From: Brachyspira hampsonii 30446
Lineage (GTDB): Bacteria > Spirochaetota > Brachyspiria > Brachyspirales > Brachyspiraceae
Direction: 5' to 3'
NCBI RefSeq assembly: GCF_000316195.1
Contig: NZ_JH994110.1
Location: 760,537-824,536, forward strand
DNA: 64,000 nucleotides
How positions within the stretch are numbered: position 1 is the stretch's first letter; every line of letters begins with the position of its first letter. Below the pieces are notes generated by a model. The model was not told the origin of the DNA. It saw nothing but the letters and a program-made list of their open reading frames with translations, and searched no databases. Of this stretch, positions 25,574 through 42,624 are shown one piece after another. Made by a program: the position numbers and the translations under genes.

Positions 25574-26416
25574 ATGAAAAAATTTATATTTGCAGTCATT
25601 ATATTATTATCACTATTTTCATGCAGCAGCAAAGGCGGTTCTGAACAAAATGTTAATTTTTTATCAGCAACATCATCAATATCAGTACCTCAGGCTAGAA
25701 TGGAAAAAAGTACGGTATCGGATTATACATCAGATTCTTCTGAGAAAATTGCAGAAAGAAAATTAATAGTTTCAGTTGATATAAGAGTAAATTCAAAAGA
25801 TGTAGAAAAAAGCTATAAAGCCATAGAAGAAAAATTAAAAGAATATAATGGATATTTTGATAATGTTGAATCTTCTAAAAATAGATATTATCTTACTATA
25901 AGAATACCTAAAGAAAATCTTTATGCTTTTATAGATTTTATAGAAAAAAATGAAAAAGTTGAAAATAAAAATATAAATACTCAAGATGTTACAGAAACTT
26001 ATTATGATACAGAAAATAGGATAAAAAATAGGGAAGTGCTTTTAGAAAAATTGAGAAACTATTTAAGAGAAGCTAAAAACATTGATGAAATACTAAAAGT
26101 AGAAGATAGAATCAATACTTTAACTTATGAAATAGAAACTATGAAAGGAAATTTAAAGAATCTGCAGTCATCTATTGATTATTCAAGAGTAACTTTAAAT
26201 ATATCAAATCCTGAAGCAATAAAAAGCAGCACAAATATATATAATAAATATTTGAATTTAATATCATTTTTGAAAGCATTTTTCTCAGGTATATTATTCT
26301 TTTTGATAGGTTTTACAGCTGCTGCTATTCCTATAGTGTTAATATTAGCATTATTCTACTATATATGTTTTGGAAAAATAGGATTAATAAAGAAATTATA
26401 TAATAAAATCAAATAA
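25574..26416 (+). CDS. DUF4349-family lipoprotein
   Basis: Protein of 280 residues. The lipoprotein signal ends LLSLFSCSS, with the lipidated Cys at about 17. The middle matches the DUF4349 pattern: RKLIVSVDIRVNSKDVEKSY, a repeated RIPKENLYAFIDFIE unit, the DVTETYYDTENRIKNRE segment and a coiled-coil stretch (about 150-205). One TM helix at about 235-262 follows near the C-terminus. It is anchored in the envelope at both ends. The family's function is unknown. Single gene. Confidence 0.88.
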   Translation: MKKFIFAVIILLSLFSCSSKGGSEQNVNFLSATSSISVPQARMEKSTVSDYTSDSSEKIAERKLIVSVDIRVNSKDVEKSYKAIEEKLKEYNGYFDNVESSKNRYYLTIRIPKENLYAFIDFIEKNEKVENKNINTQDVTETYYDTENRIKNREVLLEKLRNYLREAKNIDEILKVEDRINTLTYEIETMKGNLKNLQSSIDYSRVTLNISNPEAIKSSTNIYNKYLNLISFLKAFFSGILFFLIGFTAAAIPIVLILALFYYICFGKIGLIKKLYNKIK

Positions 26417-26480
26417 ATTATATATACATGCTATTGGTATATAAAAAAATTGTTTTTTTTAGTAAATTTATATTTTTTTG

Positions 26481-26508
26481 GGAACTTTTTAATTTTGTCA
26501 TCGTCTAA
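26481..26508 (+). promoter_or_regulatory. Sigma-E/ECF-type promoter of Spy-like gene
   Basis: GGAACTT (26481-26487) and GTCTAA (26503-26508) with a 15-bp spacer reproduce the E. coli sigma-E consensus in full. In DNA this AT-rich, a chance match of both boxes at the right spacing is unlikely. It points towards the Spy-like gene at 26760, leaving a leader of about 245 nt. Confidence 0.75.
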
Positions 26509-26636
26509 TAAAGCATAAGAAAACAAAACAATAAAAAATAAAAAACAGGAGAAAAGGTATTATCATTTTATTTAAGCATTAATAATGATTTTGCTTCGGT
26601 ATCTTTATTTGGTCAATAATAAGAGAAAGGAGGTTT

Positions 26637-26681
26637 ATGAAAATAGATAAGACTATTAAGGTACAGCGGCAGTTACAATGA
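26637..26681 (+). CDS. Possible 14-codon leader ORF
   Basis: AAAGGAGG (26626-26633), the best ribosome-binding site in this region, is followed after 3 nt by ATG and a 14-codon frame (MKIDKTIKVQRQLQ) ending at TGA 26679-26681. It lies within the leader between the ECF promoter and the Spy-like gene. It may be a leader peptide or the start of a gene removed by deletion, such as an anti-sigma gene. The preceding frame (LSINNDFASVSLFGQ, ending at 26619) may be another remnant. Confidence 0.35.
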   Translation: MKIDKTIKVQRQLQ

Positions 26682-26759
26682 ATATTATTATTACATAGCT
26701 TATGATAATCAATAAAAAATAATTTAAGAAAATATATAAATTAAAAGGAGAAAACAATT

Positions 26760-27257
26760 ATGAAAAACAAAATAAGTAAAAAAGCAGTAATATTAATCTC
26801 AATCGCAATTATGGTTTTAGGTTCAATGTCATTATTCGCTCAATACGGCAGAGGATATGGAAGAGGTGATGGAAGAGGATATGGCAGAGGTTATGGTGCA
26901 GGCTATGGAAGAGGATGCGTATATGGTCAAGGAGGTTATGGAAGAGGCGGATGCGGTTATGGTGCAGGTTACGGAAGAGGATACGGCAGAGGTTACGGAT
27001 ATTATGGTGCTGCACTTACTCAAGAGCAAATTGATCAAGTAAGAAGCATACAGGATAAATATTTTCCTCAAATGGACAGTTTAAGAGTGGAAATATATAC
27101 TCAGACTCAAAATATAAATGCTGAAATGAGAAAAGAAACTCCAGATCAAAATGCTATCAATGCAGCAATAGATGCAAGAAGTAAAGCTTCAGCAGACTTA
27201 CAAAAATTAAGAACTCAGTGCTTTTTAGAAATAGACAAAGTATACCAAAATAAATAA
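26760..27257 (+). CDS. Spy/CpxP/ZraP-like exported protein with Gly-Tyr-Arg repeats
   Basis: Protein of 165 residues. A signal peptide (to about 27, SLFAQ) is followed by about 55 residues of GYGRG/GRGYG repeats. The C-terminal domain (LTQEQIDQVRSIQDKYFPQM, then MRKETPDQNAINAAIDARSK) has the helical pattern of the Spy/CpxP/ZraP family. These are periplasmic, stress-induced chaperones or metal-binding proteins. AAGGAG lies 9 nt before the ATG. Control by an ECF sigma factor is indicated by the promoter at 26481. Antisense ORFs across the repeats are artefacts. Confidence 0.85.
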   Translation: MKNKISKKAVILISIAIMVLGSMSLFAQYGRGYGRGDGRGYGRGYGAGYGRGCVYGQGGYGRGGCGYGAGYGRGYGRGYGYYGAALTQEQIDQVRSIQDKYFPQMDSLRVEIYTQTQNINAEMRKETPDQNAINAAIDARSKASADLQKLRTQCFLEIDKVYQNK

Positions 27258-27280
27258 TTTTTTTAATCGCTCAACTTTAT

Positions 27281-27320
27281 ACCCCGTGTAATATATTGTT
27301 ATGCGGGGACTATTTTTTTT
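27281..27320 (+). terminator. Terminator
   Basis: CCCCG (27282-27286) pairs with CGGGG (27304-27308), with partial extension of the stem, followed by a run of eight T. It separates the two Spy-like genes. Confidence 0.7.
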
Positions 27321-27323
27321 ATA

Positions 27324-27351
27324 TTGCTTTATTGCAGAATGGTTATATAAT
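27324..27351 (+). promoter_or_regulatory. Promoter for second Spy-like gene
   Basis: TTGCTT (27324-27329) and TATAAT (27346-27351), 16 bp apart, about 30 nt before the gene. This is a sigma-70-type site, unlike the ECF-type one upstream of 26760. Confidence 0.55.
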
Positions 27352-27380
27352 AGTAATATAAAACAATTAGGAGGGTATAT

Positions 27381-27848
27381 ATGAAAATATTTTTAATATT
27401 TTTGACTATTGCAAGTTTAGCCTTTTCTCAATATCATTATTCTCCGGCTAATAGAGTAGGGAATGTCAGACCTTTTGTACCATCTACAGCAAAAAATGCT
27501 ATACCTCTATATCCATATAAGAATGATCTTTCTAAACCAAGATTTGCAAATCCCGGATACACTAAAAGCTATTACAGAAACGGAAGATTTCATTACTTTG
27601 GAAGCGGCTATATGAGTTATTGGGATAGACAGAAATTAAGAGATATAGACGGCAGATATTCTCCTAGATACAGAATGCTTGAAAATCAGATGAGAATAAA
27701 TAATTCTACCATCAAATCTCAAATACATCAGAGAAACCCTAATAATAATGTTGTAAATAGTGCTGTAAATGATAATTTTAGAATAGAAATGGAAATGCAG
27801 ATGATTAGAACTTTGAGAGAACTTGATATAAACAGGCATTTTAAATAA
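27381..27848 (+). CDS. Exported protein, probable Spy-like paralogue
   Basis: Protein of 155 residues with a signal peptide (cleavage near AFSQ, residue 17). A Tyr/Arg/Pro/Asn-rich middle is followed by a helical C-terminus. The C-terminal block (QIHQRNPNNNVVNSAVND, then IRTLRELDINRH) lines up by pattern with the Spy-like domain of the preceding gene (MRKETPDQNAINAAIDAR...). It is therefore a likely diverged paralogue; this rests on eye alignment. AGGAGG lies 6 nt before ATG, giving a strong start. Confidence 0.75.
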   Translation: MKIFLIFLTIASLAFSQYHYSPANRVGNVRPFVPSTAKNAIPLYPYKNDLSKPRFANPGYTKSYYRNGRFHYFGSGYMSYWDRQKLRDIDGRYSPRYRMLENQMRINNSTIKSQIHQRNPNNNVVNSAVNDNFRIEMEMQMIRTLRELDINRHFK

Positions 27849-40180: not shown

Positions 40181-40419
40181 TTTAATTTTCCTTAAAATAA
40201 TAATTATTAATGTCCTATATTGTATATTTATAGTATAAAAAAAACAATATTTTTTGAATGTTAATTTGCAATTTTGTTAACTATTTGTTTATTTGTAAGG
40301 TTATATTAATAAAGAATAAGAATATTTAAAGAAAATAATTATTATTTTACGATAATATATAATAAGATATTGATTTTATATCATTAATATACTATATTTA
40401 TAAATTGGAAGATTTGAAT

Positions 40420-41712
40420 ATGCAGACAGTAACAACTAAACAAAATATATTAATAATAGATGATGAAGAGGATATACTGACTACTTGTCAGAATATTTTA
40501 GAAGATGAAGGCTATGGAGTAGATATAGCCAAAAATTATAAAGAAGCAGAGTACATATTTAATAGTAAGAAGATAAATTTAGTATTTTTAGATGTATGGC
40601 TTCCCGATGTAGATGGGCTAGACATACTTTCTAACATAAAGGAAAAATATCCTAATACTACTGTAATAATGATGAGCGGACATGCTGGTGTTGAAACCGC
40701 TGTAAGAGCTACTAAAATGGGGGCTTATGACTTTTTAGAAAAACCTATTAGCATATCCAAGCTTCTTTCAAGCTGTGAAGATGTATTCAAAGAGAGTATA
40801 GATAAAGCGGAAGTATCAGTAAATGAGGAAAATTGCTCCAATAAACATTGCGGTAATGTAGGATATAAGATTAAACAGAGAACTATAGCTAAAAGCATTG
40901 TTGTAAGCGGTTTTGCCTTAATGGAGGGAAGAAAAACTGCATTAACATTAGTTCCTGCTGATGTTAATACAGGTATAGTTTTTATTGATATTAATACAAA
41001 TACTCATATAAAATTATCACATAATAATATACTTTCTAAAGATAAATCCGGAGCGGTTAATTCTACTGCTTTGGTATGCGGAAATAGATATATAAAGACT
41101 ACAGAGCATTTCTTGGCGGCACTTCATATGATGGGTATTACTAATTTAATAGTAAAATGTGATGGAGAAGTACCAAATGTTGATGGTTCTGCTTTAGTAT
41201 TTTGCAATGCTTTAAAAGAGGCTGGTTTTGTAGAGCAGGACGGTTATATAGAGCCTATAGTGATAGATACTACTTTAACTTATGGTAATGTTAATGATAA
41301 TGAAACTTATATAATACTTTCGCCTTATGATGGGCTTGAAGTAAGTCTTCGTATAGATTTTGCTGGTTCTATAGGAGTACAGGAATATACATATAAATTT
41401 GAAAATTTCGATCAGTTTACCGATGAGATTGGAAGAGCAAGATCATTTAATACAATAGACAATATTGATTATGCACAAAAAATGGGAATGGCTGGAAGCG
41501 GTATGATAGGAAGTCATATAATTCTTTGCGATGGAAAAGTAATTAATACCAAACTTCATTTCGATAATGAGTTTGTAAGACATAAAATTTTGGATATAAT
41601 TGGAGATTTATATATTTTAGGCAGACCTATAAGGGGCAAAGTTGTTGCTAATAAGTCATCTCATTCTTTCAATCATTCCGTTGTACATGATCTTGCAAAT
41701 AGATATTTATGA
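40420..41712 (+). CDS. lpxC: Response-regulator receiver fused to LpxC deacetylase
   Basis: Protein of 430 residues. Residues 1-120 form a complete receiver: acidic pocket IIDDEEDI, phospho-acceptor D58 (LVFLDVWLP), MMSGHAG and K108 (FLEKPI). From about 150 to the end is UDP-3-O-acyl-N-acetylglucosamine deacetylase, the committing step of lipid A synthesis. Its zinc/catalytic motifs are KTTEHFLAALHMMG, FVRHKILDIIGDLYILG and KSSHSFNHSVV. I start at the ATG at 40420, which has GGAAG 8 nt upstream, rather than the TTG at 40405. The fusion suggests direct phospho-control of lipid A synthesis. A sigma factor gene follows. Confidence 0.93.
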   Translation: MQTVTTKQNILIIDDEEDILTTCQNILEDEGYGVDIAKNYKEAEYIFNSKKINLVFLDVWLPDVDGLDILSNIKEKYPNTTVIMMSGHAGVETAVRATKMGAYDFLEKPISISKLLSSCEDVFKESIDKAEVSVNEENCSNKHCGNVGYKIKQRTIAKSIVVSGFALMEGRKTALTLVPADVNTGIVFIDINTNTHIKLSHNNILSKDKSGAVNSTALVCGNRYIKTTEHFLAALHMMGITNLIVKCDGEVPNVDGSALVFCNALKEAGFVEQDGYIEPIVIDTTLTYGNVNDNETYIILSPYDGLEVSLRIDFAGSIGVQEYTYKFENFDQFTDEIGRARSFNTIDNIDYAQKMGMAGSGMIGSHIILCDGKVINTKLHFDNEFVRHKILDIIGDLYILGRPIRGKVVANKSSHSFNHSVVHDLANRYL

Positions 41713-41769: not shown

Positions 41770-42624
41770 ATGTCAGAAAGCAGGTTAAGAACTAATACGG
41801 AAGAACAGAATAATATATCATTATATTTTGCAGATGCTAAAAAAGAAAAACTTTTAACTAGAGAAGAAGAAATAGAACTTACGAAAAGACTCAAAGAAGG
41901 CGATGCAGAGGCAAGGTCTAAACTTATTAGAAGTAATTTAAGGTTTGTTATTACTATTGCAAAACAGTATAAAAACAGCGGACTTCTGCTTGAAGATTTG
42001 ATAAGCGAAGGAAATATGGGGCTTATAATAGCAGCTGACAGATTTGATCCGGATAAAGGATATCATTTTATATCTTATGCAGTTTATTGGATAAGGCAAA
42101 GTATTTTAAGGGCTATTAATGAGAAATCAAGACTCATAAGGCTTCCTTTAAACAAAGCTATGGATTTAGTGGATTTGGAACGCACTGTGCATCAATACTA
42201 TTATAAAAGCGGATATGCTCCTGATGTTAATGAGCTTGCTGCCATATTAAATAAAGATCCTAATGATATACTTCATATTATGTCTATGAGTACAGAACAT
42301 ATTTCACTTGAGGGCGAATATAATTATGATGGTATGAAAGATAGGCTTATTGATACTATAGAGGATAAAACTTCTACAAATGTTGAAGAAACTGCTATAA
42401 ACAAAGAGCTTATGGAGGAATTAAAAGTTGCTATTGAAAGTTTATCAGATATAGAAAAACAGATTATTAATGCCAGATATGGAATAGATCAGGAGAGAAA
42501 AACTCTTAAAGAGGTTGGGGAGATGTTTTCCTTTACTAAAGAGCGTATAAGACAAATAGAAAAAAAAGCATTGATAAAAATGCATTCTCAAAAATACAGT
42601 TCATTAAAAGATTTCTTAAAATAA
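41770..42624 (+). CDS. RpoD/SigA-family sigma-70 factor without region 1.1
   Basis: Protein of 284 residues. Regions are visible in order: 1.2 (SLYFADAKKEKLLTREEEIEL), 2.1-2.3 (RSNLRFVITIAKQY, then LLEDLISEGNMGLIIAADRF), 2.4 (SYAVYWIRQSILRAI), region 3, and the helix-turn-helix of 4.2 (TLKEVGEMFSFTKERIRQIEKKAL). The short N-terminus and length fit an RpoS-like or alternative group sigma factor rather than a full-length primary sigma, but a compact primary sigma cannot be excluded. It lies between the lpxC fusion and hemW, 5 nt before hemW, so it is co-transcribed with it. Confidence 0.92.
   Translation: MSESRLRTNTEEQNNISLYFADAKKEKLLTREEEIELTKRLKEGDAEARSKLIRSNLRFVITIAKQYKNSGLLLEDLISEGNMGLIIAADRFDPDKGYHFISYAVYWIRQSILRAINEKSRLIRLPLNKAMDLVDLERTVHQYYYKSGYAPDVNELAAILNKDPNDILHIMSMSTEHISLEGEYNYDGMKDRLIDTIEDKTSTNVEETAINKELMEELKVAIESLSDIEKQIINARYGIDQERKTLKEVGEMFSFTKERIRQIEKKALIKMHSQKYSSLKDFLK

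What the first reader, a model, noticed from the sequence alone, without database searches (positions are those of the whole stretch)
26481..26508. Textbook sigma-E-type promoter in a spirochaete, driving a Spy-like envelope protein
GGAACTT-N15-GTCTAA equals the E. coli sigma-E consensus, and the gene behind it encodes a Spy/CpxP/ZraP-like protein, a class of envelope-stress effectors. This predicts an ECF sigma factor with sigma-E-like specificity. None is encoded in the window. The motif gives a handle for finding the whole regulon.
Basis: partly seen in the sequence, partly recalled or inferred. Interest (0 to 1): 0.65.

Follow-up and report, generated by a model that had tools for sequence, protein, structure and literature searches.

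The report
Sigma-E-like stress promoter in Brachyspira
The motif is almost certainly a real promoter, read by a stress sigma factor that we found elsewhere in the same Brachyspira genome together with its own anti-sigma factor and about ten other likely target genes, so a spirochaete gut bacterium appears to have an envelope-stress response that works like E. coli sigma-E but is built from different regulatory parts.

Summary
Confirmed. About 163 kb away, an operon carrying the same motif upstream encodes an exported Spy/CpxP-like protein, an ECF sigma factor (181 aa) and a zf-HC2 anti-sigma factor. The sigma factor's -35-reading helix (TVRTRIFRARKK) is nearly that of E. coli sigma-E (TVRSRIFRAREA). 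In this genome 11 of 12 sites matching a relaxed pattern precede envelope genes: Spy-like proteins, TolC-MFP-RND, other RND pumps, a lipoprotein, a rhodanese. All 26 Brachyspira genomes have the sigma gene and the motif (222 motif hits versus 9 for the reversed control). All 24 orthologues of the window gene keep both boxes while the spacer drifts. The promoter-Spy-sigma-anti-sigma cassette recurs in other spirochaetes and apparently in Fibrobacterota and Raymondbacteria.

It works like sigma-E but is not RpoE-RseA-RseB: the anti-sigma is zinc-finger type, RseB is absent from the operon, and a Spy-family protein sits inside it. The window gene's 251-nt leader is a decayed short gene still intact in relatives. 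Not shown: transcript start, sigma dependence, inducing signal. No published regulon was found in the open-access papers searched.

The parts
26481..26487 (+). -35 element GGAACTT of the ECF (sigma-E-like) promoter
   Evidence: exact match; invariant in all 24 orthologous promoters found in the genus
26488..26501 (+). 14-nt spacer between GGAACTT and CGTCTAA
   Evidence: only 67% mean identity to the modal base across orthologues against 100% for both boxes; N14 in all distinct orthologous promoters; N14 or N15 elsewhere in the regulon
26502..26508 (+). -10 element CGTCTAA (followed by T)
   Evidence: invariant in all 24 orthologous promoters; all 12 own-genome hits of GRAACN{16,17}CGTCNNA read CGTCTAA although two bases were left free
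26509..26759 (+). 251-nt leader: predicted transcript start about 26514-26517 (inferred from the usual -10 to +1 distance), then the decayed remnant of a short GRG-rich exported-protein gene that is intact at this place in many relatives
   Evidence: alignment shows the ribosome-binding site and start codon lost, the middle deleted, and stops in all frames; intact 58-96-aa copies in relatives
26760..27257 (+). target gene: exported Spy/ZraP-like protein, 165 aa
   Evidence: PF13801 Metal_resist 1.1e-11, above cut-off; ZraP 3lay 5.6e-7; predicted helical hairpin 88-123/130-163 matching ZraP and CnrX; orthologues in 24 of 26 Brachyspira genomes
27282..27318 (+). likely intrinsic terminator (12-pair stem 27282-27308, then T-rich tail)
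   Evidence: only terminator-like site in 26300-27500; 0.2 expected in shuffles

Best explanation
The site is a promoter recognised by a Brachyspira ECF sigma factor whose promoter preference is close to that of E. coli sigma-E. Shown by sequence: the sigma factor lies in an operon (motif, exported Spy/CpxP-like protein, ECF sigma, zf-HC2 anti-sigma) preceded by the same motif; the same motif precedes about ten other envelope genes in the genome; and both boxes are conserved across the genus. Inferred: in unstressed cells the anti-sigma, which has one hydrophobic membrane-spanning stretch, holds the sigma factor at the inner membrane; envelope stress frees it, perhaps sensed through the Spy-like protein encoded in the same operon. 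The sigma factor then binds GGAACTT with region 4.2 and CGTCTAA with region 2, transcribes its own operon (positive feedback), and switches on Spy-like periplasmic proteins, TolC/MFP/RND efflux pumps, a lipoprotein and a rhodanese. In the window, transcription would start near 26515, cross a 251-nt leader that is the remnant of a dead short gene, express the Spy-like protein and stop near 27318.
For: Exact motif, not expected by chance. The ECF sigma operon carries two motif copies. The motif is upstream of sigma in that operon in 25 of 26 Brachyspira genomes, and the most divergent genome has the one-base variant GAAACTT. The sigma gene is present in 26 of 26 genomes (broken reading frame in G004). 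The -35-reading helix DLPVNTVRTRIFRARKK aligns with E. coli DCPVGTVRSRIFRAREA and is conserved, while the other ECF of the genome has SDSAKSNYSYALKK there. Own-genome regulon: 11 of 12 sites precede envelope genes. 222 versus 9 control hits in the genus. The motif is nearly absent from other spirochaetes, yet sits upstream of the same cassette in four outgroup genomes. Among 80 ECF loci fetched by sigma sequence alone, all 20 closest relatives and six more distant ones have the motif upstream. Boxes 100% versus spacer 67% conserved over orthologues.
Against: No transcript start, reporter or mutant data. The most relaxed own-genome pattern (GRAACN{16,17}CGTCNNA) is not enriched in raw count over its reversed control (12 versus 22); the argument rests on the free bases and on what lies downstream. 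One of the 12 sites is inside a coding gene (C4:531769) and is a chance match. The 251-nt leader is long for this regulon (most sites lie about 28-125 nt from the start codon), so translation of the window gene from this promoter alone is not certain. Genome G004 keeps the motifs although its sigma gene reads as frameshifted.
Confidence: 0.88

Rival explanations
1. The motif is read by a sigma factor other than the operon-linked ECF, for example the second ECF (L035:5943-6530, beside clpX/hslU-like and clpC-like genes) or the group-2 sigma factor encoded in the window at 41770-42624.
For: Both exist. -35 and -10 elements with AAC and CGT cores are shared by many ECF factors (general knowledge).
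Against: The second ECF has an unrelated -35-reading helix and no motif hit lies beside it. The linked ECF carries the motif upstream in its own operon in nearly all genomes, the usual sign of autoregulation by ECF factors (PMC12153292).
Confidence: 0.06
2. The window gene is expressed mainly from a housekeeping promoter nearer its start; the motif once served the now dead short gene and is a relic in this species.
For: The short gene directly behind the motif is decayed in this genome and its two closest relatives. The 251-nt leader is long.
Against: The motif and its downstream flank are intact in those three genomes. No sigma-70-like site on the plus strand was found between 26300 and 26760. 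In two relatives (L106, L113) the motif sits directly before the same gene, 52 and 48 nt from its start.
Confidence: 0.05
3. Chance match in an AT-rich genome.
For: One of the 12 own-genome matches is plainly a chance match inside a coding gene.
Against: 0.00-0.06 expected in the window; orthologous conservation; 222 versus 9 in the genus.
Confidence: 0.01

Closest known systems
E. coli sigma-E (RpoE-RseA-RseB) envelope stress response
   Same: ECF sigma factor with a near-identical -35-reading helix; -35 element GGAACTT(TT); GTC-type -10; autoregulated operon with a membrane anti-sigma; envelope targets
   Different: Sigma factor far below the RpoE family cut-off; anti-sigma is zf-HC2 type, not RseA; no RseB in the operon but a Spy/CpxP-like protein; -10 is always CGTCTAA; targets are dominated by Spy-like proteins and RND pumps
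CnrYXH / NccYXH metal-responsive ECF systems of Cupriavidus
   Same: ECF sigma, membrane anti-sigma and an exported helical-hairpin protein of the same broad superfamily in one operon; an RND pump among the targets
   Different: Anti-sigma is zf-HC2 (class I type) rather than CnrY (class II); the operon protein is closer to CpxP/Spy than to CnrX; no obvious metal-binding His cluster in the window protein; promoter is sigma-E-like
Cpx and Zra two-component systems with Spy, CpxP and ZraP as effectors
   Same: Spy/CpxP/ZraP-family periplasmic proteins as stress targets; a family member acting as regulator (CpxP)
   Different: Control here is by a sigma factor, not a response regulator
Leptospira ECF-dependent clpB promoter (PMC6941012)
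   Same: Sigma-E-type promoter in a spirochaete, supported by an E. coli two-plasmid assay
   Different: Different target (cytoplasmic chaperone) and genus; no genome-wide motif or Spy-containing operon reported in the passages read

Membership tests
ECF (group IV) sigma factors | Sigma-70 regions 2 and 4 only, small size | tested here: met
   PF04542 54.6 and PF08281 55.9 bits over their cut-offs, 181 aa; TIGR02937 83.2 vs 42.9
ECF (group IV) sigma factors | Linked membrane anti-sigma and sign of autoregulation | tested here: met
   zf-HC2 gene overlaps the sigma stop codon (ATGA), one hydrophobic stretch, motif upstream in the operon
RpoE-RseA-RseB sigma-E system | GGAACTT / GTC-type promoter | tested here: met
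RpoE-RseA-RseB sigma-E system | Sigma factor is an RpoE equivalog | tested here: not met
   TIGR02939 99.7 bits against a cut-off of 236
RpoE-RseA-RseB sigma-E system | Anti-sigma of the RseA family | tested here: not met
   only zf-HC2 matched in Pfam
RpoE-RseA-RseB sigma-E system | RseB in the operon | tested here: not met
   operon is one or two small exported proteins, sigma, anti-sigma only
RpoE-RseA-RseB sigma-E system | Release by DegS/RseP proteolysis | not tested
   proteases of this genome were not examined
Spy/CpxP/ZraP/CnrX superfamily (window gene) | LTxxQ/Metal_resist profile | tested here: met
   PF13801 45.4 vs 29.2; ZraP 3lay 5.6e-7
Spy/CpxP/ZraP/CnrX superfamily (window gene) | Helical-hairpin fold | tested here: met
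   predicted hairpin; best matches ZraP and CnrX, Foldseek probability 1.00 but E only 4e-3, which is weak for a short hairpin
Spy/CpxP/ZraP/CnrX superfamily (window gene) | Chaperone activity or metal binding | not testable with these tools
   window protein has no histidine (sequence), so a CnrX/ZraP-type His site is absent; chaperone activity needs an assay
CnrYXH | Anti-sigma of the CnrY (class II) type | tested here: not met
   zf-HC2 profile, HxxxCxxC motif in the anti-sigma

The most novel reading that the evidence does not exclude
A Spy-family periplasmic protein encoded inside the sigma operon is the stress sensor itself: client binding titrates it away from the anti-sigma factor, so a chaperone-titration switch replaces RseB. 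This promoter-Spy-sigma-anti-sigma cassette would be an ancient, self-contained envelope-stress module shared by Spirochaetota, Fibrobacterota and Raymondbacteria.
Probability: 0.35. Interest if true: 0.75.

Novelty: new variant of a known kind. Interest (0 to 1): 0.58.

Why it matters
Brachyspira includes agents of swine dysentery and human intestinal spirochaetosis. The open-access B. hyodysenteriae genome paper I could search only counts three alternative sigma factors and describes no regulon in the passages found (PMC2650404). Here a whole envelope-stress regulon, with its sigma factor, anti-sigma factor, candidate sensor and target list (including several RND efflux pumps), follows from one motif and can be tested directly. 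It also shows that an almost identical promoter code to E. coli sigma-E is used far outside Proteobacteria with a different anti-sigma and a Spy-family protein built into the operon, which makes the sensing role of Spy-like proteins testable.

Tried and rejected
Metal-sensor reading (CnrX-like): considered because PF13801 is named Metal_resist, but the window protein has no histidine and the operon protein is closer to CpxP/Spy, so metal sensing is not favoured, though not excluded. Targets of two sRNA-like units in G001 and G003: I searched their shared antisense sequence GAGTCTNATATGAAAAA in both genomes and found only the units themselves and one near-match, so no mRNA target is claimed. 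Rfam found only rRNA in the window. The window protein has no relative on plasmids. Literature searches for a Brachyspira ECF, rpoE or envelope-stress study found none in the open-access library. Lane and Darst 2006 is not held, so the statement that this helix contacts the -35 element rests on my own knowledge. The counts of 222 motif hits versus 9 control hits are my own addition of the per-genome rows.

Full report
Observation. GGAACTTTTTAATTTTGTCATCGTCTAA is present at 26481-26508 on the plus strand. It is the only match in the window to the full motif (0.00 expected) and to GGAACN{15,18}GTCTAA (0.06 expected). Papers give the sigma-E elements of enteric bacteria as GGAACTTTT and GTCAAA (PMC1804206) or ~GGAACTT and ~TCAAA (PMC12153292). 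The -35 element is therefore exact; the -10 differs at one position from those but keeps GTC.

Where it is. The window lies in a 3.04-Mb genome (G000:C3:760537-824536). It is a Brachyspira: the closest named relatives of its sigma factor are Brachyspira records. The species was not determined.

The sigma factor. Six Sigma70_r2 proteins are encoded. Judged from their region-2 fragments, four are non-ECF types: two RpoD-like, one RpoD/RpoS-like at window 41770-42624, and one FliA/WhiG-like. Two are ECF factors. One of these (G000:C3:623689-624231, minus) lies in an operon-like run: motif, 132-aa exported protein, second motif, 150-aa exported protein, sigma (181 aa), anti-sigma (171 aa). The 150-aa protein matches LTXXQ (PF07813, over cut-off) and, as a profile, CpxP and Spy structures (3itf 4e-5, 3o39 5.7e-5). 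The 132-aa protein has no Pfam match. The anti-sigma matches zf-HC2, with an HxxxCxxC motif and one hydrophobic stretch. Sigma and anti-sigma genes overlap by ATGA.

Specificity. The sigma factor aligns with E. coli sigma-E, SigW and a Pseudomonas-type SigH. Its region 4.2 reads DLPVNTVRTRIFRARKK against DCPVGTVRSRIFRAREA in E. coli, a helix known to read the -35 element (own knowledge). It is invariant or nearly so in relatives, whereas the second ECF has SDSAKSNYSYALKK there.

Regulon in this genome. GRAACN{16,17}CGTCNNA gives 12 sites, all reading CGTCTAA. The raw count is below that of the reversed control (22), so the count alone proves nothing; the unforced bases and the context do. Eleven sites precede envelope genes: a small exported protein of 121 aa, Spy-like by eye (C3:205488-); a DUF4405-type membrane protein whose frame looks broken (C3:268639+); tolC-MFP-RND (C3:499979+); two in the sigma operon; RND (C3:626448+); the window gene; an 87-aa lipoprotein with an RND gene behind it (C3:918134+); RND (C4:342461+); rhodanese (C4:696000+); and a 177-aa protein with a weak LTXXQ match (C4:1433571-). 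Of the five small exported proteins called Spy-like, two pass a Pfam cut-off (the window gene and the 150-aa operon protein), one matches weakly, and two are judged by eye. The twelfth site is inside a sugar-binding protein gene and is chance.

Conservation in the genus. The motif GGAACN{16,17}CGTCTAA occurs 222 times in 26 of 26 genomes against 9 reversed-control hits. The sigma gene is in 26 of 26. The motif precedes sigma in the operon in 25 of 26; the most divergent genome has GAAACTTTTTTATTATTTTAAACGTCTAA. Sampled hits in other species repeat the same gene classes, adding PepSY-like and DUF305 proteins. Orthologues of the window gene were found in 24 of 26 genomes, and all 24 have GGAACTT-N14-CGTCTAA upstream. 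Over 23 distinct promoters the boxes are 100% and the spacer 67% identical to the modal base; no locus was dropped for lacking the motif.

Outside the genus. Of 367 other spirochaete genomes, 9 have an exact motif. In four of them (two in one sister genus, one in another, one in a distant family) it lies upstream of the best sigma homologue, in the order Spy-like, sigma, anti-sigma; two further hits precede Spy-like genes and one a TolC gene. A scan of genome contigs with a sigma alignment gave 80 ECF loci. The 20 closest, all spirochaetes, have a motif upstream (19 with CGTCTAA, one weaker), and all have a protein with the HxxxCxxC motif. Six more distant loci, from Fibrobacterota/Chitinispirillaceae and Candidatus Raymondbacteria, also have one, with Spy-like genes or fragments before sigma. 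In the other 54, three scattered GC-rich matches occur.

The window gene. It is a 165-aa exported protein with a GRG-rich low-complexity stretch and a C-terminal helical hairpin. It matches Metal_resist and ZraP, and the predicted hairpin resembles ZraP and CnrX, although Foldseek E-values are weak. It is homologous to the sigma-operon protein (hhalign probability 98.8). It has no histidine, which argues against a CnrX-type metal site.

The leader. In most relatives a short GRG-rich exported-protein gene (58-96 aa) lies between motif and Spy-like gene. In this genome and its two nearest relatives that gene is a wreck: ribosome-binding site and start lost, middle deleted, stops in all frames. 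This explains why the promoter sits 251 nt from the start codon, when most sites in the regulon lie about 28-125 nt away. The likely transcript ends at a terminator at 27282-27318.

Mechanism. Shown by sequence: sigma, anti-sigma and motif belong together, and the motif marks a conserved set of envelope genes. Inferred: anti-sigma sequestration at the membrane, release on envelope stress, autoregulation, and a sensing or feedback role for the Spy-like protein encoded in the operon. The inducing signal is unknown; the RND pumps and Spy-like proteins suggest misfolded envelope proteins, amphipathic compounds or metals.

Relation to known systems. It works like sigma-E. It is not a member of the RpoE-RseA-RseB family: RpoE equivalog score 99.7 against a cut-off of 236, no RseA match, no RseB in the operon. 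It shares with CnrYXH the idea of an ECF sigma with a Spy-superfamily protein but has a different anti-sigma class. A sigma-E-type promoter in Leptospira (clpB) is a precedent in spirochaetes (PMC6941012). I found no Brachyspira study of this system in the open-access library, which does not exclude subscription papers.

Noticed in passing
L162:2080-2380 (minus strand; G001:C1:1631397-1631679) and G003:C14:342-615: Two tandem copies of the ECF motif, each followed within about 90 nt by a strong stem-loop and T-run and no ORF (fold z-scores -4.0 and -4.2): possible sigma-dependent small RNAs, as MicA/RybB are for E. coli sigma-E. Found as a full unit in these two genomes only; no mRNA target found.
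   Followed up: partly
window 26509-26759: Remnant of a short GRG-rich exported-protein gene (ending in NGCYYY in many relatives); decayed in this genome and in G004 and G005, intact in many others, duplicated in some.
   Followed up: yes
L090/L091 (G004:C1:2136395-2136936): The ECF sigma gene of this genome is split by a frameshift while its motifs and anti-sigma remain: assembly error or natural loss.
   Followed up: no
L035:5943-6856 (G000:C3:829942-830855): Second ECF sigma gene with a small overlapping downstream gene (109 aa, one hydrophobic stretch, no Pfam match), between clpX/hslU-like and clpC-like genes, about 5 kb beyond the window's right end; its -35-reading helix differs.
   Followed up: partly
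window 41770-42624: RpoD/RpoS-like (group 2 type) sigma factor gene directly after a gene fusing a response-regulator receiver to an LpxC-like domain (40405-41712, judged by eye).
   Followed up: no
L219:1501-2500 (G000:C3:268639 onward): Motif variant GAAACTT before a DUF4405-like membrane protein whose reading frame appears broken in this genome (62 aa, then a second frame), longer and unbroken at the start in G002 and G009.
   Followed up: partly
window 27381-27848: Small exported protein (155 aa) with no Pfam match behind the Spy-like gene and its terminator.
   Followed up: no
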